Origin: Deltaproteobacteria bacterium
Lineage (GTDB): Bacteria; JAMCPX01
Reading direction: 5' to 3'
Assembly: GCA_023382265.1 (NCBI GenBank)
Contig: JAMCPX010000056.1
Location: 1-64,000, forward strand
DNA: 64,000 nt
Shown: piece by piece, positions 1,603 through 56,279 of the stretch
Layout: each line of letters starts with the position of its first letter
How positions within the stretch are numbered: the first letter of the stretch is position 1
Translations under genes and position numbers: made by a program
Notes under the pieces: model-generated
Told to the model about the DNA's origin: nothing
The model's database searches: none
What the model saw: only the letters and a program-made list of their open reading frames with translations

Positions 1603-1607
1603 ACCCT

Positions 1608-2752: not shown

Positions 2753-2766
2753 ACAGGAGGATTAAT

Positions 2767-3090: not shown

Positions 3091-3141
3091 AAATCATGTC
3101 GGCTCAAATAATGCGGTTAAAAATATGCGGAACTCTTAGCT

Positions 3142-3720: not shown

Positions 3721-3981
3721 TTGTTATTGTCCCGTTTTACCCACGCGGTTGGCACTTCCATTATTTATCTGCAACCCGAATGCGTTTTAACCGTCAATCA
3801 AGGTTCAAAAATTGGAGTTTAGTATGGATAATTTCAGTAATCTATACTATACTCGGCAAGTTATATAATGGAGGTATAAATTAGAGTATTAAGGTGTCTG
3901 CATGTTGAATTGGACAGCCTCTTCAGTGCTCTTGAAGTTTTCATAATGATCGGAATGTATTCTAATTACAAGGAGTAGAGA

Positions 3982-6112: not shown

Positions 6113-6127
6113 TAATTATACGGGAAC

Positions 6128-7075
6128 ATGAGTACACATAACCATAATGGATTAAATAAAAATAAAAAAGGGCTTGTGATAGCCCTTATCATTACGGTTA
6201 TTTTTATGTTTGTAGAACTGATAGGCGGGTTTTTAAGCGGAAGTCTCGCGCTGATTAGCGATGCGGGACACATGATAACGGATGTATTTGCAATCGGATT
6301 CAGTATATTTGCATTCAAAATGGCAGAGAGGCCTGCAACCGAAACAAAAACCTACGGATATCATCGCCTTGAGGTAATGGCTGCATTTATAAATGGTATT
6401 ATTTTAACAGCACTTTCTTTGATCATATTTTATGAAGCTTATGGCAGGATCGTATCCCCGCAAAAGATAAATGGTATACTGATGCTCTCTATAGCTTCTA
6501 TAGGATTTATTGCCAATATCATAGGAATAATTTTACTAAAGGAATCTCAGAGGGATAATATAAATACGAGAGGTGCATTTTTGCACATTGTAGGTGATGC
6601 GATTTCTTCAATAGGTGTCATAGCCGGCGGTTTGTTTATAATTTTCAGACACTGGTATTTTGTGGATCCTCTAATCAGTATACTGATAGGGGGCATTATT
6701 TTGAGAAGTGCTGTGGGACTTATAATAGAATCTGGCGGTATAATGCTTGAGTATGTCCCTCGCGGTATTAAACTTGAAGAAGTTACAAACTCAATACTCG
6801 GCGTTAGAGGTGTTTTAAATGTACATGACCTGCACGTCTGGACTATTACCTCGGGTTTTCATGCGATGAGTACACACGTGCAAATAGATGATCAAAAGAT
6901 AAGCAATGCTACAGAAATGGTACACAAGATAGAGCATATTTTAGGTGAGAGATATAACATAAATCATACAACAATACAGCTTGAGTGCGAAACTTGCAGC
7001 GGTATCGTGGTGTGTAGTGCAGCGACAAAATCCGTGAACTCAAAGGATGCGGTTAAAGAACAGGACAGGCTGTAA
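6128..7075 (+). CDS. Cation diffusion facilitator (Zn/Co efflux) transporter
   Basis: Inner-membrane proton-coupled efflux of Zn2+ or similar divalent metals. Six membrane segments are visible. The two metal-site motifs are both present: HMITD (about residues 48-52, following LISDAGH) and HIVGD (about 155-159, in FLHIVGDAISSIG). The cytoplasmic C-terminal domain (about 210-300) has the VHDLHVWTITSG strand, and a Cys pair lies near the end (CETCS). The His-rich N-terminus is short (STHNHNG). It follows the LysM gene by 15 bases. The metal cannot be fixed from sequence, though zinc is the best guess. Confidence 0.92.
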   Translation: MSTHNHNGLNKNKKGLVIALIITVIFMFVELIGGFLSGSLALISDAGHMITDVFAIGFSIFAFKMAERPATETKTYGYHRLEVMAAFINGIILTALSLIIFYEAYGRIVSPQKINGILMLSIASIGFIANIIGIILLKESQRDNINTRGAFLHIVGDAISSIGVIAGGLFIIFRHWYFVDPLISILIGGIILRSAVGLIIESGGIMLEYVPRGIKLEEVTNSILGVRGVLNVHDLHVWTITSGFHAMSTHVQIDDQKISNATEMVHKIEHILGERYNINHTTIQLECETCSGIVVCSAATKSVNSKDAVKEQDRL

Positions 7076-7105
7076 GGTGAATGCACCTATCTGTCCTGCA
7101 TTCTT
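7061..7105 (+). terminator. Terminator overlapping the end of the cation efflux gene
   Basis: Two-part hairpin: CAGGACAG (7061-7068) with CTGTCCTG (7091-7098), and inside it AGGTG/CACCT (7075-7088), followed by CATTCTTTT. The 5' arm lies within the last codons of the coding region. Confidence 0.75.
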
Positions 7106-7133
7106 TTGGATTAATATTTTATGGCCGTCTTTC

Positions 7134-7163
7134 TTGACATAAACAAAATGCTAAAATATGGTT
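7134..7163 (+). promoter_or_regulatory. Candidate sigma-70 promoter of the 7186 lipoprotein
   Basis: TTGACA (7134-7139), 18-base spacer, TATGGT (7158-7163), within 25 bases of the AAAAGGAGG ribosome site. The -35 element is perfect and the -10 element is weak. Confidence 0.5.
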
Positions 7164-7185
7164 AGAACAATAAAAGGAGGTTATT

Positions 7186-8178
7186 ATGAAATCAATACTG
7201 TCAAATAAACATGTGTGGTTTGTATCCGCAGTACTTTTGTTTTCTGCAATTGTGTTATCAAATTGCAGTGGTGGATCCGGTTATGTTCCTGGAAACAGCA
7301 ACAGCAGTGTATGTTCACAATCACTTTCGGCTGACATGAAAAAGCTTCTTAACTGTCCAACAACACCTTCCGCTCCGCCAACAGCACCTACCAACACTAA
7401 TTTGCCTCCGTCGATTGTTGTAGCCAATAGCGGCGTTTTTTCTTATAACTGTTTTGTTCCACCAACAGGTTCTACTATTGCAGTAACCGTATCTGCAACA
7501 GATTTTCAAACTAATGAATCTATTCCGGATTCTACAATTAATTTTTTCTCTACAACATCAGATACAGTTAAAAATAATCCGCCCGATAGTACCGTTAACA
7601 CGGGTTCAAACGGGTGGCTGCCGGGTTTACTTCCCACGGGCATTCCAGTTGCAGTTGAGGGGATCAATTCCGCCAGCGGGTATAAAAATACTTATCAGTT
7701 TGGTCTTACACTTTCACCTACAGATGCAAACTCTATTTTTAAGGTTTTACTGATTTCAAGTAATACGGTAAACCTCGTCACTGCATTATCGCACGTCACA
7801 CAGGATTGGACAAATGACGGTGCAATAGCAGGCACTGTATGGGATTGCTCCGGCAACCCAATTCAAAATGCAATCGTGACACTTGTCAATGCAGGCACAG
7901 ACGTTTCCGTGTCAGCGAATATAATTTATTTCAGGTATAGCTCTGGCCTCGGCGATATTCCGGACCCCACTTTAACATTGACCTCTTCTGACGGGATATT
8001 TTTAGCGTTTAATGTTCCACCAGGTGATTACGATGTTATTGCACAGGGCGTTCTGCCAAACGGAAATGCCCTTGTAGAACTCGGGAGAAGCTATGTGGAA
8101 TCATTTGCAGGTAGTGTAAGTATCTCAAACATACAGCCCGAGACATCCACAACAGTCACTACCACATCAATTCAATAG
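7186..8178 (+). CDS. Lipoprotein with carboxypeptidase-regulatory-like fold
   Basis: A 330-residue exported protein with a lipobox-like VLSNC (Cys about 27), then a low-complexity Ser/Gly/Pro/Thr stretch at about 28-75 and beta-rich sequence. Residues about 218-310 contain a carboxypeptidase-regulatory/CnaB-like repeat (GAIAGTVWDCSGNPIQNAIV ... SDGIFLAFNVPPGDYDVIAQ). It has its own promoter, ribosome site and terminator, so it is a single-gene unit. Such domains usually mediate surface adhesion or scaffold extracellular proteins. The Thr/Ser-rich tail (TSTTVTTTSIQ) is odd for a lipoprotein. The function is not known. Confidence 0.75.
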   Translation: MKSILSNKHVWFVSAVLLFSAIVLSNCSGGSGYVPGNSNSSVCSQSLSADMKKLLNCPTTPSAPPTAPTNTNLPPSIVVANSGVFSYNCFVPPTGSTIAVTVSATDFQTNESIPDSTINFFSTTSDTVKNNPPDSTVNTGSNGWLPGLLPTGIPVAVEGINSASGYKNTYQFGLTLSPTDANSIFKVLLISSNTVNLVTALSHVTQDWTNDGAIAGTVWDCSGNPIQNAIVTLVNAGTDVSVSANIIYFRYSSGLGDIPDPTLTLTSSDGIFLAFNVPPGDYDVIAQGVLPNGNALVELGRSYVESFAGSVSISNIQPETSTTVTTTSIQ

Positions 8179-8205
8179 TTTATGCATGTTGTAAAACCAG
8201 GTATT

Positions 8206-8240
8206 AGAACAAGCCCCTGTAAACAGGGGCTTGTTCTTTA
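8206..8240 (+). terminator. Strong terminator hairpin
   Basis: Perfect 14-bp stem AGAACAAGCCCCTG / CAGGGGCTTGTTCT with a TAAA loop, followed by TTA. It ends the 7186 lipoprotein transcript just ahead of the YjbQ gene. Confidence 0.85.
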
Positions 8241-8255
8241 ATTGAAAGTCTTGTT

Positions 8256-8651
8256 ATGAAGACCATTTCTGTTGTTACCAAAAAAAGGATTGAGATGATT
8301 GATGTTACTTCAGAGATAAACAACATGTTAAAAAGATTGGGGGCTGTAAGAGGCGTATGCTATCTGTTTGTCCCACATACAACCTCTGGTATTACGATAA
8401 ATGAGAATGCTGATCCTGCTGTTAAACAGGACATACTTGATACACTGGATAAGGTTGCCCCATACAATGACAACTATCATCATAAAGAAGGCAATGCAGA
8501 TGCACATATTAAATCAAGTGTTATAGGCGTCACATTGTCATTGTTTGTTGAAAACGGCAGGCTTGTTCTTGGAACATGGCAGTCTGCATTTTTCTGTGAG
8601 TTTGACGGACCAAGGACGAGAAGCCTTTTGTTAGAATTTACCCCTTTATGA
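8256..8651 (+). CDS. YjbQ / UPF0047 family protein
   Basis: A 131-residue member of the widespread YjbQ family (some members have weak thiamine-phosphate synthase activity). Visible signatures are VPHTTSGITINENADPAV (about 44-61), HHKEGNADAHIKSSVIG (about 77-93), GTWQSAFFCEFDGPRTRSL and the conserved His residues. Length matches the family (about 130-140). The stop codon overlaps the start of the PilZ gene in an ATGA, so they are translationally coupled. The physiological role is unsettled in the family. Confidence 0.9.
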   Translation: MKTISVVTKKRIEMIDVTSEINNMLKRLGAVRGVCYLFVPHTTSGITINENADPAVKQDILDTLDKVAPYNDNYHHKEGNADAHIKSSVIGVTLSLFVENGRLVLGTWQSAFFCEFDGPRTRSLLLEFTPL

Positions 8652-9049
8652 ATTTAATATATCATGCACGTACACAAAGAAAACTCATCTGTATGCCTGT
8701 CCTTCTATCTATAGAGAGTATCAATAAATTCAAGATTGATTATACAACGGATATGAGTATTGGAGGATTACTTATTCAAACAGAAGAGCCTTATGATAAA
8801 GGTACAAAACTTGATATAAGATTTAGGATACCAGGGGCAATTAAGCTTATCGAGGTAAAAGGTGAAGTTGTCTGGTCCCATAAATACATACCTGGAACAG
8901 AACCAACACAGGAATCTCTGCCTGGAATGGGTATAAGGTTTTTAGAACTCGATGAACAGAGCAGACACTATATAACGTCTTATGTAGAGAGCAAGAAAGG
9001 CATAAGTGAGGAAGACATATTTGTTGACGGGTTTGACTCCACAAATTAA
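8648..9049 (+). CDS. PilZ-domain protein (c-di-GMP binding candidate)
   Basis: A 133-residue single-domain PilZ-like protein. The N-terminal arginine patch (ARTQRK, about 7-12) and the D-x-S-x2-G motif (TDMSIGGL, about 34-41) needed for cyclic di-GMP are both recognisable. It continues with KGEVVW and GMGIRFLELD. It probably acts as a small receiver that changes envelope or motility behaviour through partner proteins. ATGA overlap with YjbQ upstream and a 44-base overlap with the DUF502 gene downstream suggest one operon. The arginine motif is slightly irregular, so ligand binding is likely but not certain. Confidence 0.82.
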   Translation: MNLIYHARTQRKLICMPVLLSIESINKFKIDYTTDMSIGGLLIQTEEPYDKGTKLDIRFRIPGAIKLIEVKGEVVWSHKYIPGTEPTQESLPGMGIRFLELDEQSRHYITSYVESKKGISEEDIFVDGFDSTN

Positions 9050-9674
9050 AAAGACATTGGGTTCAAAGATAAGGAACATCTTTATCGCCGGTATAGCTGT
9101 ATTTATACCAATTATTATTACTATCTTTATTTTGAATGTACTTGTTTCATGGTCTGATGGCTTGCTAAAGATACTCCCTGGTGTAGCAAATCCTTTAACC
9201 TATATTCATATACCGGGCATAAGCCTTGTTATTGCCCTGGTGATAATATTTATTATGGGGTTGATGACATACAATTATATCGGCCAAAAGCTGTTAATTA
9301 TAATGGAAGACATCTTTGCAAAAATTCCATTTATCAAGGGTATCTATTCAGGTGCGAAACAGATAACAGAGGCATTTACAGAAGACAAAAATAAGTTTAG
9401 CAGAGTAGTGCTTGCAGAGTTTCCTGGGGCGGGAAGTTATGCAATAGGATTTGCCATTAGTGAAGCAGTTATAAATAATCCGGAACCCGCAAGATATCTT
9501 ACCGTTTTCATACCAACTGTTCCTAATCCGACATCCGGGTTTTATTTATTTGTTAAACAATCTAATTTATATGAGATAAATATTTCTGTAGAGGAAGCTT
9601 TCAGAATCATACTTACTATGGGTGTTGGTATGAACAAACCAATCAATGCGGCACCTTTTATAAAAGGCTTGTAA
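9006..9674 (+). CDS. DUF502 inner-membrane protein
   Basis: DUF502 family protein: two N-terminal membrane segments (about residues 24-50 and 72-95), the conserved YIGQKLL and IPFIKGIYSGAKQITEAF segment, FPGAGSYAIGFAI, and VFIPTVPNPTSGFYLFV with a C-terminal LTMGVG. Function in bacteria is unknown; plant COV1 relatives affect vascular patterning. The GTG at 9006 overlaps the PilZ gene by 44 bases. TTG codons farther in (for example near 9054) would remove that overlap, and no start has a good ribosome site. The family assignment is secure and the start is not. Confidence 0.85.
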   Translation: MRKTYLLTGLTPQIKKTLGSKIRNIFIAGIAVFIPIIITIFILNVLVSWSDGLLKILPGVANPLTYIHIPGISLVIALVIIFIMGLMTYNYIGQKLLIIMEDIFAKIPFIKGIYSGAKQITEAFTEDKNKFSRVVLAEFPGAGSYAIGFAISEAVINNPEPARYLTVFIPTVPNPTSGFYLFVKQSNLYEINISVEEAFRIILTMGVGMNKPINAAPFIKGL

Positions 9675-9686
9675 AAGCTATGAACT

Positions 9687-9712
9687 TGACTCAAAAAATG
9701 AATTTGGGTTAA
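9687..9712. repeat. Dispersed GGGTTAA hairpin element, copy 1
   Basis: The sequence TGACTCAAAAAATGAATTTGGG followed by TTAA closely matches a second copy at 38613-38639 (TGACCCAAAATACATAATTT then GGGTTAA). Both lie just after a coding region and can form a weak hairpin. It looks like a small dispersed intergenic repeat or a degenerate terminator type. Confidence 0.45.
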
Positions 9713-9816
9713 GTAAGAAAGTTTGTCTTTTTCTTTTGCAAGAAAAACTTATTCTGATTGACTTGTCTGATTAAAACATTTCTGATATAAAACTAATTTT
9801 GATATGGAGGACTAAT

Positions 9817-10161
9817 ATGGAAGATTGTTTATTCTGCCAGATAGTGGAAGGTAAAATACCGTCCAAAAAGGTTTATGAAGATGAGGATGTAATTGTAATA
9901 GAAGATATAAGACCGGTTGCACCGGTGCATTTGCTTGTTATTCCAAAGAAACATATCCCTACACTTGTTGATATAAGACAGGAGGATCAGCTGCTTATTG
10001 GTAAGATGATGTTCGTAGCAAAACAAATGGCAGAAAAAACGGGTATTTCTGAAAAAGGATTTAAAGCTGTATTTAATGTTAAACAATGGGGAGGGCAGAC
10101 AATATACCACATACACCTTCATATAGTAGGCGGAGCTCCTTTAAGAATTCACGTCGCATAA
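9817..10161 (+). CDS. HIT-family nucleotide hydrolase (HINT-like)
   Basis: A 114-residue protein with the histidine triad HIHLHIVGG (about residues 98-106) that hydrolyses nucleoside phosphoramidates or dinucleotides. CLFCQIVEGKIPSKKVYED and LLVIPKKHI are family landmarks; the two N-terminal Cys of CLFC may bind zinc. ATG at 9817 is chosen over the in-frame TTG at 9799 because GGAGG (9806-9810) sits six bases before it. Monocistronic, followed by its own terminator. Confidence 0.94.
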   Translation: MEDCLFCQIVEGKIPSKKVYEDEDVIVIEDIRPVAPVHLLVIPKKHIPTLVDIRQEDQLLIGKMMFVAKQMAEKTGISEKGFKAVFNVKQWGGQTIYHIHLHIVGGAPLRIHVA

Positions 10162-10208
10162 GTGTGAAATTTTATATCCATAACGTGATTCAAGTATCAC
10201 ACTTTTTT
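10160..10208 (+). terminator. Terminator of the HIT gene
   Basis: AAGTGTGA (10160-10167) pairs with TCACACTT (10197-10204), ending in a TTTTTT run. The loop is long (29 bases), and the stop codon is inside the first arm. Confidence 0.7.
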
Positions 10209-10280
10209 CACATCAAATCTCTATTCTATTGATATGTAAGCATTTATAGTCTGGCATGATCTTTGCCTAAAGATATATTC

Positions 10281-11165
10281 ATGTTTCAAAAAACTGTAAA
10301 AGAAAAGGTAATATGTGAAGGGTATGGTTTACATACAGGAGAGTTCTCGCGCGTAACAATTCATCCTGCGGAGGCGTCGTACGGAATAGTCTTCATTAAA
10401 AAGAACGGCAGTTCAATTAGGTATATTCCTCTTAAACCTCAAAGCATTAAAAACACGTTATTTGCTACAACAATAGGAGACGAGGTAGTAACCATTTCAA
10501 CAGTAGAACATCTATTAGCAACACTAAATGGCTTTGGAATAGACAACGCTATAATCGAAGTTGAAGGGGATGAACTCCCGGGAGGGGATGGAAGCGCTAA
10601 CATATTTTCCCAGGCTATTTTTGATGCAGGCGTTATAACATTCTCGGATTTATCAAATGCAATAACTTTTGATAGAAAATTTACAGTAGAATATAATGAT
10701 GGATATATAACATATCTACCCGATGATTTGCTAACGATAAATGGAACTATAGACTTTAGTCATCCAAAGATATTAAAACAAGTATTTGTTTATAAAAATT
10801 CCATGGAACGCTTTATCTCGGATTTATCAAATGCAAGAACTTTTGGATTCTTGAAAGACTATTCCACAATGCAGGCACTCGGGCTTGCAAAAGGTTCTTC
10901 GCTTGAAAATACGATTGTACTTGATGAAACGGATGTCATGAATATAGGGGGTTTAAGATACAACGATGAGTTTATTAGACATAAGATACTTGATCTTTTG
11001 GGGGATCTTTACATCATAGGTAATACAATCAACGGACGTATAAACAGCTACAAAAGCGGTCACGCACTCAACCATCTCTTTGTACAACAAATAATTTCGA
11101 TGATGGAAAGCAATACCATAATAGAACAAGAGTTAATAAAGCCTGCCGTTGTATTTTCGTATTAA
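10281..11165 (+). CDS. lpxC: UDP-3-O-acyl-N-acetylglucosamine deacetylase
   Basis: Zinc deacetylase for the first committed step of lipid A synthesis, which shows the cell has LPS. Zinc ligands are H77 (TVEHLLATLNG), H234 and D238 (RHKILDLLGD); H261 (GHALNH) is the catalytic histidine. Also visible are YGLHTGE and DELPGGDGSA. The ATG at 10281 gives the typical MFQKTVKEKV start; a TTG at 10263 would add six residues. Oddly, a 30-base segment encoding SDLSNA-x-TF is present twice (10642-10671 and 10816-10845, one mismatch). The second copy is the family-conserved ARTFGF region, so the first looks like an internal copy. Confidence 0.95.
   Translation: MFQKTVKEKVICEGYGLHTGEFSRVTIHPAEASYGIVFIKKNGSSIRYIPLKPQSIKNTLFATTIGDEVVTISTVEHLLATLNGFGIDNAIIEVEGDELPGGDGSANIFSQAIFDAGVITFSDLSNAITFDRKFTVEYNDGYITYLPDDLLTINGTIDFSHPKILKQVFVYKNSMERFISDLSNARTFGFLKDYSTMQALGLAKGSSLENTIVLDETDVMNIGGLRYNDEFIRHKILDLLGDLYIIGNTINGRINSYKSGHALNHLFVQQIISMMESNTIIEQELIKPAVVFSY
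10642..10845 (+). repeat. Direct repeat inside lpxC
   Basis: Two 30-base copies, 10642-10671 and 10816-10845, agree at 29 positions (TCTCGGATTTATCAAATGCA then A-T/G-AACTTTTG). They start 174 bases (58 codons) apart in the same frame. The encoded peptides are SDLSNAITF and SDLSNARTF. Confidence 0.9.
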
Positions 11166-11217
11166 TAAAAAAAAACGATAAAATAATATAATCATTATAG
11201 TCAATTTATTCTATCAT

Positions 11218-11235
11218 TTGGGTTTTATAACCCAA
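11218..11235. other. Palindromic hairpin between convergent genes
   Basis: TTGGGTT (11218-11224) TTAT AACCCAA (11229-11235) lies between lpxC and the minus-strand response regulator, which converge. No T-tract follows on either strand, so a bidirectional terminator role is only possible. The rest of the gap is AT-rich with nothing else recognised. Confidence 0.4.
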
Positions 11236-11299
11236 TATGGGTAAAATGACACATATTTTGAATCGCAGCAATATGTTTATAGTTTTAATGTATTAATAA

Positions 11300-11668
11300 C
11301 TAAGTTTTTGAAATATAAGTTTTTATATACCGTTCTAATTCATTCATAATAAAGGGTTTTGTAAAAAGCCTTAGCACCTCTGGTTTTGAAGCATCCTTTG
11401 AAACATATGTTGGAGGTAATGAGGTAAGAAGTATTATTTCAGAAAAAGGTTTTGGCATTGCTCTTATAATCGCATCCATACCCTCAGAGGTGACTGTTTC
11501 AAGATCAACAAGGAATAAATATTGATCATTACCCCTAACGTGTTTTAACTTGTTTAAGGCGTCAGATACATTGGTATAAAAATAGAACTCATCCATGTAA
11601 CAAGATAACACCTTTGATAAGGAAATCTTTAATAACTCACAGTCGTCAATAACAATAGCAATATTCAT
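11300..11668 (-). CDS. Single-domain response regulator (CheY-like)
   Basis: A 122-residue receiver without an output domain. The acidic pocket DD (VIDDCE, residues 8-9), the phospho-acceptor Asp at about 55 (LVDLET), the switch Ser/Thr (ILLTSL) and the Lys (TKPF, about 104) are all in place. It is encoded alone, convergent with lpxC and divergent from the larger regulator at 11847. No cognate histidine kinase is in the window. The target is unknown. Confidence 0.85.
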   Translation of the reverse strand: MNIAIVIDDCELLKISLSKVLSCYMDEFYFYTNVSDALNKLKHVRGNDQYLFLVDLETVTSEGMDAIIRAMPKPFSEIILLTSLPPTYVSKDASKPEVLRLFTKPFIMNELERYIKTYISKT

Positions 11669-11846
11669 ACTAAGACTTTACGCAAGCACCGTGCCAGATT
11701 GCACAGTAATCAACTATTACCATTACCCTATTTTATCTTTGTAAAGCAATTAATCCCCTACAAAGGGAATTAGCAGGCAAGCAACTATCTTGACACTGTT
11801 TATTTATATATGTTACTAAAGAACATTGATTAAATAAGGAGGCTTT

Positions 11847-12896
11847 ATGGGGAAAAAGATCTTGCTCGCCGATGATTCGATAACCATTCAAAAGGTTATA
11901 TCTATAACCTTTGCTCCACCAACGTATGATATCACCATTGTTGACAATGGGAACGATGCTATAAAAAAAGTGAGCGAGATAAAACCGGATGTGGTTTTGA
12001 CAGACATTGTTATGCCTGGCAAAAACGGTTATGAAGTGTGTGAAGCTGTAAAAAGTAATACCGAATTACAGCACATACCTGTTCTTTTACTAACAGGCGC
12101 GTTTGAAGCCTTTGACGAACAAAAAGCTAAGCAAGTAGGTGCAGATGCATGGCTTTCCAAGCCTTTTGAGACGCAATCACTTATAGATAAGGTCAACATC
12201 TTGTTCTCAAAACCTGCTGTAAAAAAGCCTATCGAAGCTAAACCTGCAACAGCACCGGCACAACCATCCAAACCAGGAGTTCCTCCACCTCCACCGCCGA
12301 GGAAGCCTGCAGTTCCCCACCCAGCTCCTGCGAAAGAAGAGATTAATGAACCGGTTGAGGAAATTATGGAACCTGAAACCTTCAGCGCAAGTGAGGAGAC
12401 TATAGGAGCAGAAAGCGAATGGGAAACAATCCCTCTCAGCGAAGATAACACCGGACCAAATAAGCAAGAGATAGAAGAATTCCCTGAAGAAGAACTAAAA
12501 CCCCTTGAAGGTCCTGCTATAGGATTTGATGAGCTTGAAGAGGCAATAACCGAATCTGAAGAAAAAACAGAAATGGAAGTTTTACCTGCTGCAGAACATT
12601 ACGAAAAAACTTATGAAGACCAAGAACTGATAAATTCTGAAGAAATTACAGGGACACAAAAAACAAAGGCTATACAATTGAGTAGAGAGGATGTAACTAA
12701 AATTGCATCAGAACAAATAGAAAAACTCTTACAGGATATATTACCCGATACAGTTAAGCAAGCTGTAGGAGCAAAGGTAGAGGCTATTATTAGAGATGTT
12801 GCAGAGAAAATTATATGGGAAGTTGTTCCAACTCTCACAGAAACCATGATAAAAGAGGAAATACAGCGTCTAAAGGCCGCTAAAAAGAAAGCCTGA
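11847..12896 (+). CDS. Response regulator with Pro/Glu-rich linker and helical C-terminal domain
   Basis: Receiver domain at residues about 4-120 (ILLADDSITIQKVI, phospho-Asp in DVVLTDIVMPG about residue 52, Lys in LSKPF), then a long proline- and glutamate-rich linker (about 125-270), then a conserved C-terminal helical segment (about 275-349: SREDVTKIASEQIEKLLQDI ... IIWEVVPTLTETMIKEEIQR). This architecture, placed directly before valS, is recurrent in deltaproteobacteria. The C-terminal end recalls gliding/polarity regulators, but no DNA-binding domain is visible. AAGGAGG precedes the ATG. Partner and output are unknown. Confidence 0.85.
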   Translation: MGKKILLADDSITIQKVISITFAPPTYDITIVDNGNDAIKKVSEIKPDVVLTDIVMPGKNGYEVCEAVKSNTELQHIPVLLLTGAFEAFDEQKAKQVGADAWLSKPFETQSLIDKVNILFSKPAVKKPIEAKPATAPAQPSKPGVPPPPPPRKPAVPHPAPAKEEINEPVEEIMEPETFSASEETIGAESEWETIPLSEDNTGPNKQEIEEFPEEELKPLEGPAIGFDELEEAITESEEKTEMEVLPAAEHYEKTYEDQELINSEEITGTQKTKAIQLSREDVTKIASEQIEKLLQDILPDTVKQAVGAKVEAIIRDVAEKIIWEVVPTLTETMIKEEIQRLKAAKKKA

Positions 12897-46774: not shown

Positions 46775-47247
46775 GGCTGGAGACAACTGAATAGCTGGTT
46801 AAGATATTCACATGATGTCCTGCTCGACCATCCGGATGCCGAGAAGGTTATTATTTGTATAGATGCGGAATGTGAAAAAGAAATTAATGAAAAAGTGAAG
46901 AAGGTAGAGCAAAGTCTCTCTAATAAAATCGATAAACCTATATTCTATGTAATTGTTGTAAACGCTGTAGAGGGGTGGTTACTTGCAGATACAGAGACTA
47001 TAAAAAATAGCTTGGAACATAATGCCAATGTCAATATTTCGCCTTCTGCTACCCTCGATTGTAAACCGAAAGAACTCTTAAAAAAATTTTTCACAAAACT
47101 AACAAAGATTTTATTCATATGCGTGATAATCCAAAGATTGCAGAAAGACTGGACATTGATGAAGCAGCAAGAAACAACCCAAGCTTGGCTTACTTTGTGG
47201 AAAAACTTATGATCCTTAAGATTTCAATCTATATTAGAGATGGGTAG
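46775..47247 (+). pseudogene. Frameshifted, 5'-truncated DUF4276-type gene
   Basis: One frame (46775 to about 47098) encodes SHDVLLDHPDAEKVIICIDA, VIVVNAVEGWLLADTETI and DCKPKELLKKFF. A second frame (from about 47095, stop 47245-47247) continues with HMRDNPKIAERLDIDEAARN and NPSLAYFVEKL. The order fits DUF4276 (a TOPRIM-like family often encoded beside AAA ATPases in defence loci): acidic strand, exWxLA segment, then a conserved tail. A one-base deletion (or two-base insertion) near 47095 breaks the gene, and an in-frame TGA at 46772 plus loss of the usual N-terminus show truncation. It is almost certainly non-functional. Confidence 0.6.
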
Positions 47248-47453: not shown

Positions 47454-47481
47454 AATGGGACATGTGATCACATGCCCCATT
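47454..47481 (-). terminator. Palindromic terminator after the octahaem cytochrome gene
   Basis: AATGGGA-CATGTGATCACATG-CCCCATT is a near-perfect 14-bp-arm palindrome (one A:C mismatch) 38 bases beyond the cytochrome stop codon. It has only a weak T-tract (CTTTG) on the minus strand. Confidence 0.55.
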
Positions 47482-47518: not shown

Positions 47519-49054
47519 TTACTGAGGTTTTTCAAGCCGTTCCAATTCTTTATTGGTGATGTGTTCTAATGTTTTAATCTGTTCGGGTGTGTAACCGAGT
47601 GATTTAAAGTCCATTTCCCCATGTGTAGAATGACATTTATCACACGATAGCCCGATCTTCTTTACTGCGTGATTTACCGATATGTAGGATGTGCCCGGGA
47701 CCTGCATCGCCATCCATTCCCCGCTCCAGGTGAAGCCCATTGCTTCGAACGGTTTCATACCTGCATCCAATGCCGCTTTTACATTACCCGTCTTGTTATA
47801 AACCTCTCTGTTCGGAGCAAGCAGTGCCGGGAAGTTTGCCATCTGGGGGTTATCTTTCAGGAAGCCCATGCCGGGCTCCTGCCACATCTTGAGTTTTTTG
47901 TCGAACAGCAGCACCTGTGTCAATCCACGCACAGGATATATCTTTGCACCGGGTGATTTTATACTCGATATCTCAAATGCCATCCAGCTCTGTACATCCT
48001 GATGATACTTGGTATTGGGGACCCTCCAGATGTAAACAGGATGGCCCATTGTTATCTTTACCGTGGGAACATAGATGCCCGGTATTGAAGGGATTTTATC
48101 GTATTTTGAAAGTTCGCTGTATTTCCCGTTTATGGTATCCTTTACAGGTTTGCCCCAGTTTTCATAGGATATGCCGGATACAACGGGTATATGGCATGTC
48201 TGACACGCAATCTTTTCTATATGTGCGTTAAGAATTTTTCCTATCTTACCTTGATGCGGCATATATCCGTGACAGTTTGAGCATGTAACTTTTACGTCTG
48301 GCAGATCATTAGCAGCCATGTCGGACTCAAATTGGCCCTTTGGAATTTTATGATGTTCTGTAACATGGCATGTTATGCATTTAAGCCCTGCCTTTGCGTG
48401 AACATCAGTCTTAGGTGTATATGGAGTACCTCTTTTATAATCATAAGAAAATGCATGCTCATGACATCTTAAACATGCTTCGTTTGTTGGAACCTTTGTT
48501 ATACTTAGAGCTGCTTTAAGCGATTTATCTTCTCCCCAGTGAGTACCTGTTGAATCTGTAACAAGCGTCATTCTATCCTTCATATTATAATCCCGGGCAT
48601 GACAAACCAGACAATCCACCGTGTTTGCCTGATCCTGTGTTGGGGGTTGACCGGGCGGGAGTGGAGGCATTGGCAATGCCCCTATATGGCATACGCCGCA
48701 TCCTGCAGCCTGAACAGTAAAATGCCCGTTTGTAGAAGCAGTCCAGTTGGAAATGGTAAGAGAACCTGCGAGTGCGCATTCTCTGTTTAACATGCCCCAC
48801 CACGAGCCGTCGGGTAATCCCTGGACATTCCTGATGGGTGTAGCCATATGCCAGTGCACTGTCTGTGTAATCTCATTTAATGCCTCAGGATGACACATAG
48901 CACACGTCTGTGCACCCTGATAACCGTTCTCTTTTATCATCTCGGCTCCGGGATGGACCCATGGTTTCAGTAAACCGTTTTGCTTTGCTAATGCAGTTCC
49001 ACTAAGCCACAGCAGAGCAAAAGCCGCTAAATAAAACTTAAAATTTGATTTCAT
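47519..49054 (-). CDS. Periplasmic octahaem c-type cytochrome
   Basis: A 511-residue exported protein (signal peptide cleaved at ALA-KQ, about residue 23). Eight CxxCH haem sites are at residues 51-55, 119-123, 148-152, 194-198, 226-230, 258-262, 284-288 and 471-475. A haem-free stretch of about 180 residues separates haems 7 and 8. The first site (CAMCHPEALNEITQTVHWHM) recalls octahaem tetrathionate-reductase-type cytochromes, but enzyme identity is not certain. AGGAGG precedes the ATG. It is divergent from a porin and a 13-haem lipoprotein, so it is probably the periplasmic partner of an outer-membrane electron conduit. Confidence 0.88.
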   Translation of the reverse strand: MKSNFKFYLAAFALLWLSGTALAKQNGLLKPWVHPGAEMIKENGYQGAQTCAMCHPEALNEITQTVHWHMATPIRNVQGLPDGSWWGMLNRECALAGSLTISNWTASTNGHFTVQAAGCGVCHIGALPMPPLPPGQPPTQDQANTVDCLVCHARDYNMKDRMTLVTDSTGTHWGEDKSLKAALSITKVPTNEACLRCHEHAFSYDYKRGTPYTPKTDVHAKAGLKCITCHVTEHHKIPKGQFESDMAANDLPDVKVTCSNCHGYMPHQGKIGKILNAHIEKIACQTCHIPVVSGISYENWGKPVKDTINGKYSELSKYDKIPSIPGIYVPTVKITMGHPVYIWRVPNTKYHQDVQSWMAFEISSIKSPGAKIYPVRGLTQVLLFDKKLKMWQEPGMGFLKDNPQMANFPALLAPNREVYNKTGNVKAALDAGMKPFEAMGFTWSGEWMAMQVPGTSYISVNHAVKKIGLSCDKCHSTHGEMDFKSLGYTPEQIKTLEHITNKELERLEKPQ

Positions 49055-49080
49055 GCACTTATCCTCCTATATTATTTTAT

Positions 49081-49095
49081 ATAGATTCAATCTAT
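49081..49095. promoter_or_regulatory. Operator-like palindrome in the divergent cytochrome promoter region
   Basis: ATAGATT-C-AATCTAT is a perfect 7-bp inverted repeat around one base. It covers the -10 hexamer of the cytochrome promoter (49089-49094), the classical position for a repressor. Confidence 0.55.
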
Positions 49096-49116
49096 CCTTT
49101 TTATAAAGCGTGTCAA
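49089..49116 (-). promoter_or_regulatory. Promoter of the octahaem cytochrome gene
   Basis: Minus strand: TTGACA (49116-49111), 16-base spacer, TAGATT (49094-49089), 35 bases before the start codon. Confidence 0.65.
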
Positions 49117-49230
49117 TTGTTCAGCGTAGAATTGTTTTTTTAATTTTATTTCTGTAACAACTTTTATTCTCATTTTTATTGCTACTTAAAATTGAGTGTG
49201 TTTGTATACATAATATGTTAAGGAGGTAAT

Positions 49231-50451
49231 ATGGAGAAGATATTTTATAACATAAACATATTTATAATATTGTTTGTTTTGTTTATCCCTGTAACTGCAA
49301 TAGCTTCATCAAACAATATAGGGCTTTCTTCGGATACTTATGTTGGAGGATATAACCTTGACGTGAATAGCACAACGCAACATTATATGCCTTTTTATGA
49401 ATCCCTTGATCTTAATTATCCTCTGAATAATTCAGAAATATCTTTCCATGCATCTGGCTGGCTCAGGTATGACGCAATTGATCAGCTTTATTCGGATAGA
49501 ACTTATTCAGATCTCAGTTATGGGTATTTGAATTATCAGCCCAGGACAGTACCTATTAGATTCAGGCTCGGCAGATTGAACAGCTGGTTTGGAGCTGCGG
49601 ATGATCATTATGACGGGTTTGAAATGCTTTTGCATACAAAACAGGGTATAGGATTTGGAGCTTTTATAGGGAATGAAATTAATGAGTTATCCGAGTATGA
49701 GACAGGAAATATTACAACAGGAGGGAGGGTATCGATAGATAGATATATATTTGGATTAGGTGCATCGGCTTTTTATACAAAACAAGGTATGGAGATAAGA
49801 CAGGCAAGGTGGGGCCTGGATGGATGGCTAAGGCCTACAAGCATGTTGTATTTATTTGGACGGTATTATTATGATATAGTGGACAAAGAATTATACGATG
49901 GTTTAATAAAGGCATCTTTGACTCCAACAAGCAGGTTATTCTTAAATGCACAGTATGCGTATTTTAACCCCGTATCTTTAATAGATAAAACAAGCATCTT
50001 CTGGGTATTTTCCACAGAGTTTTACAGAACGATAGAGGGGGACATCGGGTATAGATTGATGGATAACCTTTCAATTGATATTGATGCAACAAAATATATG
50101 TACAGTTCGTACGGCAACTCATACAGCTATGGAGGAAAGTTGACATACGATCGATCCCCGTATGCTGCAGGTATTGAATTGCACAAGGCGGATGCAAACC
50201 CAACAGATTATTTAACAACAAGGCTTTATGTATTAAGGAACTTCATGATGGGATTTTATGCAAACATAGACATGATTTATGCATCTTATCTTGGAGAACT
50301 CAACGGTTATAATCATAGTATTACAGGACAGGTTGCTGTCGGGAAAAATATTCTCGATGATTTAAAAGTTACGATATCAGCCGATTACTTGGACGGACCT
50401 TATGTAAGACATGGCGGGTTTGGTATGTTAAGTATTAAATACGATCTATAG
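49231..50451 (+). CDS. Outer-membrane beta-barrel porin of a putative electron conduit
   Basis: A 406-residue exported protein with signal peptide ending AIA-SS (about residue 26). The mature part is built of amphipathic strands ending in Tyr/Phe/Leu (PFYESLDLNYPL, EISFHASGWLRYDAI, RFRLGRLNSWFGAADDHYDG, YLFGRYYYDIVD) without other domains, as for a 20-plus-strand barrel such as OmbB/MtrB/DmsF-type porins. A strong AAGGAGG ribosome site is present. It lies between two multihaem cytochrome genes. Family membership is inferred from composition, since no sequence motif defines these porins. Confidence 0.72.
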   Translation: MEKIFYNINIFIILFVLFIPVTAIASSNNIGLSSDTYVGGYNLDVNSTTQHYMPFYESLDLNYPLNNSEISFHASGWLRYDAIDQLYSDRTYSDLSYGYLNYQPRTVPIRFRLGRLNSWFGAADDHYDGFEMLLHTKQGIGFGAFIGNEINELSEYETGNITTGGRVSIDRYIFGLGASAFYTKQGMEIRQARWGLDGWLRPTSMLYLFGRYYYDIVDKELYDGLIKASLTPTSRLFLNAQYAYFNPVSLIDKTSIFWVFSTEFYRTIEGDIGYRLMDNLSIDIDATKYMYSSYGNSYSYGGKLTYDRSPYAAGIELHKADANPTDYLTTRLYVLRNFMMGFYANIDMIYASYLGELNGYNHSITGQVAVGKNILDDLKVTISADYLDGPYVRHGGFGMLSIKYDL

Positions 50452-50460
50452 GGGGGCATA

Positions 50461-51513
50461 ATGAAAAAATTATTATTTATGACATCTGCTTTGATTTTAA
50501 TTTTAGCCATTACTTCTTGTAATAAAGTCTTATCCTCTAATAAGGATAGACTTAAATTCTCTCACAAACTTCACATATCAAATGGTATAGATTGCCTTAC
50601 CTGTCATTCTGGTATTGAAAAAGCAAAGAATGTATCAACAAGTTTTATCCCTGAGATGAGTGTATGCTTTCAGTGTCATAGTGATGCACAAAATAAATGC
50701 TCTATGTGTCATACAAATCCCGATAAAGCTCAACCTTTTAAAGTAGAAAAAAAGGATATTGTTTTTGCACATGATGAACACATACCAAGGGTAAAAAATG
50801 ATTGCACTTATTGTCATACACGTATACCGTTTGAAACAGAGCCGACACCCGGAAATCTTCCAACAATGCAGGTATGCATGACATGTCATCAAAAGGACTA
50901 TGATTCTCTTAAATGCTCTATGTGTCATACCGAGTTAAGTTCAATATCTATTAAGAGATTAGCAAAATTTTCGCATAATGCCGGCTTCAAGTACAATCAC
51001 GGGGCTCTTGCAAGAACAGATATACAGAGTTGTGAGCAATGCCATCAACTGTCTTTCTGTGATACCTGTCATAACACACAGGACAAGATACTCCCGGCTA
51101 TAAGATACCCTGAGGCACCACAGAAGGCACTCATTCACAGAGGGGATTGGCTTGCGGTACATTCCATTGAGGCACAGCAGGATCCCGCATCATGTTATAG
51201 ATGTCATACTGCTGATAGTTGCAGGGCGTGTCATATAAGAAACGGGGTAGGTGCAGATACATCTTCTCCTGTAGCAGCACCACATCCTACGGGAACAGAC
51301 TTTTTATTTAATACTGCCTCAAGCCAATTTCATGGAAGGCTTGCAAGACAAAATATAAATACATGCGCATCATGCCATAGCGGTGGGACTGATTCTATAT
51401 GTGTACAGTGTCATAAAGTTGGTGGTGTAGGCGGGAATCCACATCCGGCTAATTTTAAATCATCTTTAAATCAAAACAAGGACGCTGTTTGTGTAATATG
51501 TCATGGACAATAA
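50461..51513 (+). CDS. 13-haem c-type cytochrome lipoprotein
   Basis: A 350-residue lipoprotein (lipobox LAITSC, Cys 20) with thirteen CxxCH sites, about one haem per 27 residues. This is the density of extended wire-like cytochromes such as MtrA. Sites include CLTCHS, CFQCHS, CSMCHT, CTYCHT, CMTCHQ, CSMCHT, CEQCHQ, CDTCHN, CYRCHT, CRACHI, CASCHS, CVQCHK and CVICHG, and free histidines (FSHKLH, FAHDEH) supply distal ligands. A trihaem unit is duplicated near the N-terminus. It starts ten bases after the porin gene with GGGGGG upstream. Likely location: outer membrane, plugged into the porin. Confidence 0.9.
   Translation: MKKLLFMTSALILILAITSCNKVLSSNKDRLKFSHKLHISNGIDCLTCHSGIEKAKNVSTSFIPEMSVCFQCHSDAQNKCSMCHTNPDKAQPFKVEKKDIVFAHDEHIPRVKNDCTYCHTRIPFETEPTPGNLPTMQVCMTCHQKDYDSLKCSMCHTELSSISIKRLAKFSHNAGFKYNHGALARTDIQSCEQCHQLSFCDTCHNTQDKILPAIRYPEAPQKALIHRGDWLAVHSIEAQQDPASCYRCHTADSCRACHIRNGVGADTSSPVAAPHPTGTDFLFNTASSQFHGRLARQNINTCASCHSGGTDSICVQCHKVGGVGGNPHPANFKSSLNQNKDAVCVICHGQ
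50695..50930 (+). repeat. Tandem trihaem-module duplication (20-base identical cores)
   Basis: AAATGCTCTATGTGTCATAC occurs identically at 50695-50714 and 50911-50930, exactly 216 bases (72 codons) apart. Both encode KCSMCHT, the third haem site of each module. Confidence 0.9.
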
Positions 51514-51584: not shown

Positions 51585-51635
51585 TCATATATGCTGAATT
51601 TTGTCAAAACGTTAATTAAACATAAAGGAGAGCGT

Positions 51636-52268
51636 ATGACGGCCGCTCCTAAAAAAGTTCAAAAGAAAAAGCTAGTAAAAAAGAAGATTTCTATTAAAAA
51701 AACTGCTCTATCAAAAAAACCTAAAAAGAGTGACAAATTGGTTTCAAAAGTTGCAAAAAGTAGTATCAGAAAAAAAATATTAAGTAGAAAAAAGAAAGAA
51801 AATATGAAGAAAACACATTTGAAAACGCATATTGAAGTAGTAAAAAAAGAATCGATTTATTATAATGAAATAAAGCAAATGCTCTTAAAGATGAAGGCTT
51901 CTATTATGGAAGCTCTTGAAAAGAAAAAGCTTTCTCCCGATGAAGAAAAGAATATGGAGATTGAGGAGCTTGATGCGATGGCGGAAGAAAGAAATAGGGA
52001 ATACGAATATCTTCTCACAAGCATGGATATCAAGAAACTTCGCGAGATTGATGAAGCCTTAACAAAGATTGATAACGGTACTTATGGTTTTTGCGAGGAT
52101 TGCGGGGAGCCGATTCCAATTGCAAGATTAAAGGCATTACCTTTTGCTAAATTGTGTATTGATTGCGCCTCAAATCTTGAACAGGAAGAGGCTATAAGAC
52201 AATCATTGCAAAGCGAGAAAGATATATTCTCAAATACAAGCAATGAAGAAGAAGGGGAAGCAGAGTAA
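51636..52268 (+). CDS. DksA/TraR-family zinc-finger regulator with basic N-terminus
   Basis: A 210-residue protein. The first 70 residues are Lys-rich (MTAAPKKVQKKKLVKKK...), followed by a coiled coil (about 85-155, with DEEKNMEIEELDAMAEERNR) and the DksA/TraR zinc finger C-x2-C-x17-C-x2-C (CEDCGEPIPIARL ... AKLCIDC). DksA-type proteins bind the RNA polymerase secondary channel and, with ppGpp, adjust rRNA and amino-acid promoters. The basic extension is unusual and may bind nucleic acid. ATG 51636 is chosen (AAAGGAGAG upstream) over an earlier in-frame start at 51591. It ends two bases from the convergent argC. Confidence 0.88.
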   Translation: MTAAPKKVQKKKLVKKKISIKKTALSKKPKKSDKLVSKVAKSSIRKKILSRKKKENMKKTHLKTHIEVVKKESIYYNEIKQMLLKMKASIMEALEKKKLSPDEEKNMEIEELDAMAEERNREYEYLLTSMDIKKLREIDEALTKIDNGTYGFCEDCGEPIPIARLKALPFAKLCIDCASNLEQEEAIRQSLQSEKDIFSNTSNEEEGEAE

Positions 52269-54364: not shown

Positions 54365-55489
54365 ATGCTAATACAGAAAAAATTATTTTTAAATACGCCG
54401 GTATCGGATTCATCACTAACTGGTGTGGCTGAGAAGATAACTAACCATACAAGGCTTGATTCTTTTGATGCAAAGTTAATCTTAAATTCATCAGATATAC
54501 ATCTGATTGGTGCAATGGCTGAGTATAAAAAAAAGGTGAAAAGCGGTAACCTTATCTATTTTACAGTAAACAAACACATAAACTACACAAACGTCTGCAG
54601 GGTTCATTGTCAGGTATGTGCATTTAAAAGAGGAAAACATGCATCAGATGCATACGTTTTAGACATAGATCACATTATTAACAGCCTGAAACTGTATGGC
54701 GATAATCTTGATGAGGTCCATATTGTTGGCGGTCTTAATCCCGATTTGCCTTTTGATTATTACATATCAATGATAAAAATAATAAAAACAAATTTCCCCG
54801 GAATAACTGTTAAAGCATTTACTGCGACCGAGATTAACTTTTTTGCAAGTCTTTATAAAACAACAATCCATGATGTGTTATCCAAATTACTTGATGCAGG
54901 CCTGGATACAATGCCTGGCGGAGGAGCGGAGATGTTATCCGATCATATCAGAGCCATGTTATTTAAAGGGAAAGAACAAAAAGATGTATGGCTTGAAACC
55001 CATAGAACGGCACACTCACTCGGCATAAAAACTAACGCCACAATGCTTTACGGTCATATCGAAACGGATGACGATATTATCAATCACCTTGAAGAACTGA
55101 GAAAACTTCAGGATCAGACATACGGGTTTCTTACATTCGTTCCTTTAGTTTTTCATCCGGACAATACGCCTATGTACAGAAAGGTCCGGACTCCTTCTGC
55201 TATACGCAAACTTAAGATTATAGCATTGTCACGGCTTTATCTTGACAATTTTCCACACATAAAAGCTTACTGGGTTATGCTGTCGGAAGGTATTACACAA
55301 ATAGCGCTCCATTTTGGAGCCGATGATATAGATGGCACGATAGGTGAAGAAAAGGTAACACACGCAGCAGGTGCAAAAACACCTTACGGTCTTGCAAAAG
55401 ATAAAATGGTCAATATAATCAAGGATGCCGGTTACGTACCTGCTCAGAGAGACGGAATATATAAAATAATAAAATTGTACGATAAATAG
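54365..55489 (+). CDS. mqnE: Aminofutalosine synthase (radical SAM)
   Basis: Radical SAM enzyme of the futalosine route to menaquinone; joins enolpyruvyl-benzoate to SAM-derived adenosine. Iron-sulfur motif C78-x3-C82-x2-C85 (NVCRVHCQVCAF), HIVGGLNPDLPFDYYISMIK, FPGITVKAFTATEINFFA, DTMPGGGAEML and KAYWVMLSEGITQIALHFGA fit MqnE rather than MqnC. The length of 374 is typical. It precedes mqnA by seven bases. MqnB, C, D are not in the window. Confidence 0.94.
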   Translation: MLIQKKLFLNTPVSDSSLTGVAEKITNHTRLDSFDAKLILNSSDIHLIGAMAEYKKKVKSGNLIYFTVNKHINYTNVCRVHCQVCAFKRGKHASDAYVLDIDHIINSLKLYGDNLDEVHIVGGLNPDLPFDYYISMIKIIKTNFPGITVKAFTATEINFFASLYKTTIHDVLSKLLDAGLDTMPGGGAEMLSDHIRAMLFKGKEQKDVWLETHRTAHSLGIKTNATMLYGHIETDDDIINHLEELRKLQDQTYGFLTFVPLVFHPDNTPMYRKVRTPSAIRKLKIIALSRLYLDNFPHIKAYWVMLSEGITQIALHFGADDIDGTIGEEKVTHAAGAKTPYGLAKDKMVNIIKDAGYVPAQRDGIYKIIKLYDK

Positions 55490-55496
55490 TGAAGCT

Positions 55497-56279
55497 ATGA
55501 AAATCGCGCGTATGCCATATATTAATGTAGATCCTTTTTTTTATACGCTTGAATATGAAAAGGAAGAACCTCTGATAAACCTTGTTTCTGTATATCCAAG
55601 AAGGATGGGAGAACTTGCCCATAGGAAAGATGCACTTGATGCAGGGACTATCTCTGTCATGGATTTCTTAAAGCTTCAAGATACTTATGAACCTCTTGAT
55701 AAGTTATGCGTTGCAGTAAAATCAAAAGCAGGCAGTGTTACCCTGTTTTCAAAAGCACCTCTGGAAAAATTGAAATTGCGTAAGATCGGCATAACAAATC
55801 AAACATCGACATCTAAGGTATTGCTCAGGATTATACTGGAAAACAGGTACGGCATATCATCCATTGAATATATTGATAATCCCGAGCCCGACAATGTCGA
55901 TGCTTATCTTTTTATAGGAAATGCTGCGCTCACTTATACACATATCGGGTTAAAAGGGTTTAAATATATATATGACATTGGTGAGGAGTGGTATAAATGG
56001 ACAGGCTTACCTTTTGTTTTTGCTATATGGGCAGTAAATAAAAATATGAAAAAGCCGGATAGACAGCGTCTGATTGGCATATTGAGCGCGTCTCTTGACG
56101 TTTTCGGCAAGTATGAAAAATCAATGGCAAAGAAACGTGCAGCAGAATTATCCCTCAGTCCTTCTATTATAGAAGATTACTGGCATTTGTTTATTTACAG
56201 GCAAACAGAAACTGTAGATAAAAGTCTTGAGTTGTTTATATCTTATGTAAAACGAATAAAGGAGGTATGGCATGGATAA
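55497..56279 (+). CDS. mqnA: Chorismate dehydratase
   Basis: Converts chorismate to 3-enolpyruvyl-benzoate, entry to futalosine menaquinone synthesis. RMPYINVDPFFYTLE, DAGTISVMDFLKLQD, ITNQTSTSKVLLRIIL and IGEEWYKWTGLPFVFAIWAV match MqnA (periplasmic-binding-protein-like fold, cytoplasmic). 260 residues. Its final bases overlap the small acidic gene that follows. With mqnE this shows the organism makes menaquinone by the futalosine route. Confidence 0.93.
   Translation: MKIARMPYINVDPFFYTLEYEKEEPLINLVSVYPRRMGELAHRKDALDAGTISVMDFLKLQDTYEPLDKLCVAVKSKAGSVTLFSKAPLEKLKLRKIGITNQTSTSKVLLRIILENRYGISSIEYIDNPEPDNVDAYLFIGNAALTYTHIGLKGFKYIYDIGEEWYKWTGLPFVFAIWAVNKNMKKPDRQRLIGILSASLDVFGKYEKSMAKKRAAELSLSPSIIEDYWHLFIYRQTETVDKSLELFISYVKRIKEVWHG

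What the first reader, a model, noticed from the sequence alone, without database searches (positions are those of the whole stretch)
47519..51513. Putative outer-membrane porin-cytochrome electron conduit with 8-haem and 13-haem cytochromes
Seen directly: eight CxxCH motifs in an exported protein (47519-49054), a barrel-like exported protein (49231-50451), and thirteen CxxCH motifs in a 350-residue lipoprotein (50461-51513), in a divergent three-gene locus. Known: porin plus multihaem cytochrome complexes (Mtr of Shewanella, OmbB-OmaB-OmcB of Geobacter) carry electrons across the outer membrane. Inference: this is such a conduit. The 13-haem density (one per about 27 residues) suits a wire inside the porin, and the combination of an octahaem protein with a 13-haem lipoprotein does not match any conduit I can name.
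Basis: partly seen in the sequence, partly recalled or inferred. Interest (0 to 1): 0.82.

Follow-up and report, generated by a model that had tools for sequence, protein, structure and literature searches.

The report
Two-gene outer-membrane electron conduit
This bacterium, from a little-known group sampled in mine-drainage-type sediments, carries a gene pair that probably forms a haem-lined wire through its outer membrane for moving electrons out of (or into) the cell; the pair resembles conduits already described, and the eight-haem protein beside it looks like a separate enzyme that sits there by rearrangement.

Summary
In detail: 8, 0 and 13 CxxCH motifs in three intact exported ORFs (47519-49054 -, 49231-50451 +, 50461-51513 +). 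The barrel plus 13-haem lipoprotein is well supported as an outer-membrane porin-cytochrome (Pcc-type) conduit. The two genes are adjacent in all 8 of the 9 genomes of this phylum that have them. A similar no-haem OMP-like ORF next to an 8-14-haem relative recurs in many unrelated families. The own genome also holds quinol-side (NrfH/NapC-like, cytochrome b561 fusion) and large MtrC-like lipoprotein cytochromes. A two-gene conduit of a porin and a 12- or 14-haem cytochrome of 338-344 aa is already published for Anaeromyxobacter and Kuenenia, so this is a new member of a known kind. The octahaem protein is not a conduit subunit by the evidence. It is a divergent octaheme tetrathionate reductase (OTR)-superfamily enzyme that keeps the catalytic lysine. 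It is present in 9 of 9 phylum genomes, but elsewhere in the genome in every one except the window's; its position here looks like a genus-specific rearrangement. The "triplet" is therefore not a new conduit type. Function, electron direction and substrate remain untested; AlphaFold models were too poor to use.

The parts
49231..50451 (+). Outer-membrane beta-barrel (porin-like) component, 406 aa, no cysteine, signal peptide, no Pfam/NCBIfam/PDB match
   Evidence: no family match; amphipathic strands z 3.5; orthologues in 8 of 9 phylum genomes counting fragments, distant homologues in G022, G042, G055; alignment
50461..51513 (+). 13-haem c-type cytochrome lipoprotein: two c7-like triheme domains (6 haems) plus a 7-haem C-terminal half
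   Evidence: lipobox Cys20 invariant; 11 non-motif His and Met66/Met136 invariant in the family
50518..50520 (+). Codon of lipobox Cys20: predicted lipidation site of the 13-haem protein
   Evidence: sequence MKKLLFMTSALILILAITSC; Cys invariant in the family alignment
47519..49054 (-). Octahaem c-type cytochrome of the OTR superfamily; judged a separate periplasmic enzyme, not a conduit subunit
   Evidence: Lys207 corresponds to OTR chain residue Lys153, Cys93 conserved
47454..47481 (-). Terminator-like hairpin (12 pairs) just downstream of the octahaem gene, consistent with a single-gene transcript
   Evidence: pattern match only
49055..49230 (.). Divergent 176-bp intergenic region with weak promoter-like sites on both strands and an AAGGAGG ribosome-binding site before the porin gene
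   Evidence: consensus matches only, not convincing evidence
51591..52268 (+). DksA/TraR zinc-finger protein; downstream neighbour kept in relatives, marks the ancestral position of the conduit (not part of the conduit)

Best explanation
The porin gene (49231-50451) and the 13-haem lipoprotein gene (50461-51513) encode a two-component porin-cytochrome conduit. The beta-barrel forms an insulated hole in the outer membrane, and the compact cytochrome (one haem per 27 residues) is threaded through or docked in it as a haem wire. It exchanges electrons between periplasmic cytochromes fed from the quinol pool and surface cytochromes or external minerals, most likely Fe(III) oxides or other extracellular acceptors. 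The N-terminal half is two c7-like triheme units, each probably with two bis-His haems and one His/Met haem. The C-terminal half has seven haems, each with a conserved His available. The octahaem gene is a separate OTR-superfamily periplasmic oxidoreductase that lies next to the conduit only in this genome. Shown: gene anatomy, haem counts, conserved gene pair, conserved axial-ligand candidates, octahaem family and its different location in relatives. Inferred: barrel fold, insertion of the cytochrome in the barrel, electron direction, substrates.
For: Motifs and signals. Barrel-like strand pattern. Pair adjacent in 8 of 8 phylum genomes that have it. A similar OMP-like ORF next to 7-14-haem relatives in unrelated families (G042, G022, G055, G017, G049, G047, G041, G044, G062, G060, G081, G222, G205, G194, G242). 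Cytochrome profile matches c7-type wires (3ov0, PpcA) and the MtrC/MtrF II-IV domain. Rest of the chain in the same genome: NrfH/NapC-like 11-haem protein, 11-haem cytochrome fused to cytochrome b561, 12- and 17-haem cytochromes, several ~800-950-aa 9-haem proteins, most with lipoprotein-type signal sequences. Literature precedent: two-gene Pcc clusters with a 12- or 14-haem cytochrome of 338-344 aa (PMC4245776); conduit definition (PMC6148476).
Against: No direct evidence for the barrel: AlphaFold models failed (pLDDT 29.5 and 35.9), and no Pfam, NCBIfam or PDB match to any known porin. Sequence homology to OmbB/OmaB or to the Anaeromyxobacter/Kuenenia proteins could not be tested. The lipid anchor is not universal among the distant relatives: G042 and G022 look like ordinary signal peptides.
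Confidence: 0.78

Rival explanations
1. One reading: a tripartite conduit in which the octahaem protein is the periplasmic electron-delivering subunit (an OmaB analogue), the porin the sheath and the 13-haem lipoprotein the surface cytochrome.
For: The three genes are adjacent and divergently arranged here. The octahaem gene is present in all 9 phylum genomes and the conduit in 8 of 9. Outside the phylum the two co-occur slightly more than expected (4 genomes, 1.5 expected, Fisher p 0.05).
Against: In all 8 relatives the octahaem gene is on another contig beside other genes. Outside the phylum the two are never neighbours in the five genomes where both occur (closest about 19 kb apart in G151). 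OmaB is a small c-type wire (own knowledge), whereas this is a 511-aa OTR-type protein with a conserved catalytic Lys and an extra Cys. A shared liking for cytochrome-rich genomes explains the weak co-occurrence.
Confidence: 0.06
2. Same conduit, but electrons run inward (oxidation of Fe(II) or another outside donor), as proposed for MtoAB/PioAB two-component conduits.
For: Two-component conduits without a separate surface cytochrome are typical of Fe(II)-oxidation mtr clusters (discussed in PMC4245776). Relatives are MAGs from what look like mine-drainage sediments (inferred from isolate names), where Fe(II) is abundant.
Against: The genome has many candidate surface lipoprotein cytochromes and NrfH/NapC- and b561-type quinol-side cytochromes typical of reduction chains. 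No MtrB/PioB family protein in any phylum genome. Direction cannot be read from sequence.
Confidence: 0.2
3. The barrel is an ordinary channel for soluble substrate and the 13-haem lipoprotein is an outer-membrane-tethered periplasmic electron buffer; they do not form a wire.
For: No structural proof of a complex; failed models; no family match for the barrel.
Against: Immediate pairing of an OMP-like ORF with a many-haem cytochrome across many unrelated families is hard to explain unless the two proteins work together.
Confidence: 0.1

Closest known systems
Two-gene pcc clusters of Anaeromyxobacter spp. and Candidatus Kuenenia stuttgartiensis (PMC4245776)
   Same: [quoted passage not shown] 12 or 14 haem motifs; 338-344 aa (here 13 motifs, 350 aa)
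   Different: Here the cytochrome is a predicted lipoprotein, there described as periplasmic; sequence homology to the named proteins not tested
OmbB-OmaB-OmcB and ExtABCD/ExtEFG conduits of Geobacter (PMC6148476)
   Same: Integral outer-membrane protein plus multihaem c-cytochrome(s); some lipoprotein cytochromes and 12-haem periplasmic cytochromes
   Different: Geobacter clusters have three or four genes with separate periplasmic and surface cytochromes; here one cytochrome only, candidate surface cytochromes encoded elsewhere
MtrCAB / MtoAB / PioAB
   Same: Works alike: barrel sheath with an inserted haem wire
   Different: No MtrB/PioB (PF11854) hit in any of the 9 phylum genomes; a 406-aa barrel (MtrB is much larger, own knowledge); 13 instead of 10 haems
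Octaheme tetrathionate reductase OTR of Shewanella oneidensis (1SP3), for the neighbouring octahaem gene
   Same: Eight CxxCH, catalytic Lys (Lys153 = Lys207 here) and the overall C-terminal pattern; only PDB match
   Different: Scores 114 bits against the TIGR04315 cut-off of 375; separate deep clade in the tree; longer (511 aa against 443)
3OV0 (GSU1996, identity from own knowledge) and PpcA c7-type cytochromes
   Same: c7-like triheme units in the N-terminal half, with conserved His and Met that could give two bis-His and one His/Met haem per unit
   Different: Those are soluble periplasmic proteins with no porin partner (own knowledge); the C-terminal 7-haem half has no solved relative

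Membership tests
Porin-cytochrome (Pcc-type) outer-membrane conduit, functional class | Gene for an outer-membrane beta-barrel adjacent to gene(s) for multihaem c-cytochrome | tested here: met
   Adjacent in the window and in all 8 phylum genomes with the pair, plus many other families; barrel nature itself see next row
Porin-cytochrome (Pcc-type) outer-membrane conduit, functional class | The adjacent protein is a transmembrane beta-barrel | tested here: inconclusive
   Signal peptide, no Cys, amphipathic strands z 3.5, but AlphaFold model pLDDT 29.5 and no family match
Porin-cytochrome (Pcc-type) outer-membrane conduit, functional class | Sequence homology to OmbB/OmaB/OmcB or to the Anaeromyxobacter/Kuenenia pair (BLAST E < 0.01 as used in PMC4245776) | not tested
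[quoted passage not shown]
   Needs biochemistry
MtrAB/PioAB (MtrB_PioB family) | Barrel of PF11854 | tested here: not met
   No hit in the window protein or in 9 phylum genomes
   Elsewhere in the genome in 8 of 8 relatives
TIGR04315 octaheme tetrathionate reductase family (for the octahaem gene) | Score over the curated cut-off of 375 bits | tested here: not met
   113.9 bits; 0 of 9 phylum genomes over cut-off
OTR superfamily (for the octahaem gene) | Eight CxxCH, alignable over the C-terminal 350 residues to 1SP3, catalytic-haem Lys conserved | tested here: met
   E 4e-17 to 1SP3; Lys153 of OTR corresponds to Lys207, found in 12 of 13 aligned octahaem-type proteins (window included), absent in L174; Cys93 likewise

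The most novel reading that the evidence does not exclude
In this genus the OTR-type octahaem enzyme and the conduit have come under one divergent control region and work together: the periplasmic enzyme transforms a soluble compound abundant in mine drainage (for example tetrathionate) and exchanges its electrons with the outside through the 13-haem conduit, a coupling I know of no description of.
Probability: 0.06. Interest if true: 0.6.

Novelty: new member of a known kind. Interest (0 to 1): 0.36.

Why it matters
It adds a candidate phylum (9 genomes, one family), seemingly from mine-drainage-type sediments, to the bacteria likely to do extracellular electron transfer, with the conduit in 8 of 9 genomes. 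It also shows that the minimal two-gene conduit with one 12-14-haem cytochrome is widespread across families, so it is a good minimal model for structural work. It corrects a tempting but wrong triplet reading. The OTR-like octahaem enzyme, found in all nine genomes as a distinct clade, is an uncharacterised enzyme worth assaying in a sulfur-rich acidic setting.

Tried and rejected
AlphaFold2 of the barrel and of the 13-haem protein with 6- and 8-sequence alignments: mean pLDDT 29.5 and 35.9, so no fold search was run. A 13-row alignment (A1) had no stretch conserved enough for the contig scan; a narrower one (A3) found only the phylum members and distant Acidobacteria/Planctomycetota cytochromes. 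Plasmid collection: no match for either protein. MtrB/PioB family: absent. Sigma-70 promoter scan: sites little above the chance number. The triplet hypothesis was tested by synteny and rejected. A link to type IV pilus genes was considered: in relatives the conduit lies directly after a pilus-type operon ending in a PilR-like regulator (read by eye), but in this genome that operon is on another contig without the conduit, so no regulatory link is claimed.
Full report
OBSERVATION. They contain 8, 0 and 13 CxxCH motifs; shuffled sequences give at most 1 and 2. There are no CxxxCH or CxxxxCH motifs. The octahaem protein and the barrel start with secretion signals. The 13-haem protein has a lipobox ending at Cys20, and Cys20 is invariant in the eight-sequence family alignment. 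The porin ORF has no cysteine. The octahaem gene is on the minus strand, followed by a terminator-like hairpin; the porin and 13-haem genes are co-directional with a 9-bp gap.

BARREL. No Pfam, NCBIfam or PDB family matches the 406-aa protein. A home-made amphipathic-strand count gives 18 strands against 10.1 +/- 2.3 in shuffles of the same composition (z 3.5). Orthologues and several distant partner proteins also score high, while six cytosolic or inner-membrane controls do not. A FadL-type barrel from the same genome was missed by the same test, so a negative would have meant little, but the positive is informative. AlphaFold failed (pLDDT 29.5). The barrel is therefore probable, not shown.

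13-HAEM PROTEIN. It matches cytochrome c7, paired-CxxCH and the MtrC/MtrF II-IV domain. With a 13-row family profile, the best solved relatives are 3ov0 and other c7-type proteins, matching the N-terminal half. In the phylum alignment, 11 histidines outside the CxxCH motifs (35, 38, 104, 107, 172, 180, 226, 234, 275, 291, 328) and Met66 and Met136 are invariant. The protein has 24 His in all, so 11 are free for 13 haems. The simplest reading (inference) is that each c7-like unit has two bis-His haems and one His/Met haem, and that the seven C-terminal haems are bis-His. The C-terminal half has no solved relative among the good matches.

THE PAIR IS CONSERVED, THE TRIPLET IS NOT. The window's phylum holds just nine genomes in the searched set, all one family. 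Porin and 13-haem genes occur, always adjacent, in eight of them; in two the porin is cut by a contig end, and the ninth genome (G007) is only 80% complete. The octahaem gene is in nine of nine. In seven relatives it is on a contig other than the conduit's, and in G007 no conduit was found at all. Where both sides could be read it has recurrent neighbours: a 189-199-aa and a 520-541-aa ORF, read by eye as 5-formyltetrahydrofolate cyclo-ligase and RNase Y. In the relatives the conduit follows a pilus-type operon ending in a PilR-like regulator and, where the contig extends, is followed by the DksA/TraR-like gene. In the window's genome that operon is intact on another contig without the conduit, while the DksA/TraR gene still follows the conduit. 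The octahaem-conduit neighbourhood is therefore best explained as a rearrangement in this genus.

OUTSIDE THE PHYLUM. Among 281 further genomes, 30 have a strong 13-haem-profile match (E below about 1e-40) and 14 have an octahaem-profile match; 4 have both against 1.5 expected (Fisher p 0.05). In none of these, nor in G151 whose cytochrome match is just weaker, are the two genes adjacent. By contrast, an OMP-like ORF of about 390-480 aa without haem motifs lies immediately beside the 11-14-haem gene in G042, G055, G017, G049, G047, G041, G062, G060, G081, G222, G205, G194, G242 and others, and beside shorter 7- or 8-haem versions in G044 and G022. The minimal porin plus one-cytochrome module is thus widespread.

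SETTING. The own genome holds the other parts of an electron-transfer chain: an 11-haem NrfH/NapC-like protein, an 11-haem cytochrome fused to cytochrome b561, a 17-haem NrfH-like protein, 12-haem and 11-haem periplasmic-type cytochromes, and at least four 804-945-aa 9-haem proteins, most with lipoprotein-type signal sequences; the three of these that were scanned match the MtrC/MtrF domain. Menaquinone-biosynthesis genes of the MqnC/CofH and MqnA families lie in the window at 54365-56279. The MtrB/PioB family is absent from all nine genomes. Named relatives are MAGs whose isolate codes (DBS2, DX4, WY2, FK_Sedi) suggest mine-drainage sediments; that habitat is inferred from the names only. Seven of nine genomes have dsrA over cut-off; the window's genome and G003 do not.

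OCTAHAEM PROTEIN. It hits TIGR04315 at 114 bits against a cut-off of 375, and its only PDB match is Shewanella OTR, 1SP3. The literature says OTR's second haem is catalytic and ligated by a highly conserved lysine (PMC11024163). Counting along the printed 1SP3 alignment puts a lysine at chain position 153 in 'DAVKHG', which corresponds to Lys207 in 'YDYKRG' here. It is conserved in every aligned octahaem-type protein except the very divergent L174, as is the single non-motif cysteine, Cys93. In the tree the phylum's protein forms its own deep clade inside the superfamily, away from OTR itself. It is most likely a periplasmic oxidoreductase; its substrate is unknown (sulfur or nitrogen oxyanions are the obvious candidates).

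COMPARISON. Shi et al. (PMC4245776) describe two-gene pcc clusters in Anaeromyxobacter and Kuenenia: a porin-like protein and one cytochrome of 338-344 aa with 12 or 14 haem motifs, argued to span the membrane without a surface cytochrome. That is the anatomy found here. Otero et al. (PMC6148476) define conduits by barrel, periplasmic cytochrome and surface redox lipoprotein; this locus lacks a separate one, unless the single 13-haem lipoprotein does both jobs or the unlinked surface cytochromes complete the path. Membership by descent in Pcc could not be tested because the named sequences were out of reach.

VERDICT. A sound observation, half-right interpretation. The pair is a probable two-gene porin-cytochrome conduit, a new member of a known kind; the octahaem gene is a separate OTR-superfamily enzyme.

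Noticed in passing
own genome contig C18 (L119) and C40: A cluster of multihaem cytochromes (12-, 4-, 4-, 7- and 14-haem ORFs), with identically scoring matches on C40 suggesting a duplicated or doubly assembled cluster.
   Followed up: partly
L122:6075-8627, L123:5210-7624, L124:6068-8683, L125:4522-7359: Family of 804-945-aa 9-haem proteins, most with lipoprotein-type signals, with CarboxypepD_reg domains and an MtrC/MtrF-like match; candidate cell-surface terminal cytochromes. L123's gene follows two outer-membrane-type ORFs, one of the FadL/TodX family.
   Followed up: partly
L121:7679-9760: 693-aa protein with 11 haem motifs fused to a cytochrome b561 domain, resembling a CbcL-type quinol oxidoreductase of Geobacter (resemblance recalled, not tested).
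   Followed up: partly
phylum genomes: Seven of nine genomes carry dsrA (with a second dsr-like gene beside it), but the window's genome and G003 do not: possible loss of dissimilatory sulfite reductase.
   Followed up: no
relatives G002-G006, upstream of the conduit (L058-L062): Conduit genes directly downstream of a pilus-type operon ending in PilS/PilR-like genes in the relatives, a position not kept in the window's genome.
   Followed up: partly
window 46895-47212: 105-aa ORF with a weak DUF4276 match, possibly a gene remnant near the rearrangement point beside the octahaem gene.
   Followed up: no
L073 (G049), 1004-12077: In an unrelated genome the same porin + 12-haem pair sits in a larger cluster with 9-, 11- and 11-haem cytochromes and a sensor-kinase/regulator pair.
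   Followed up: no
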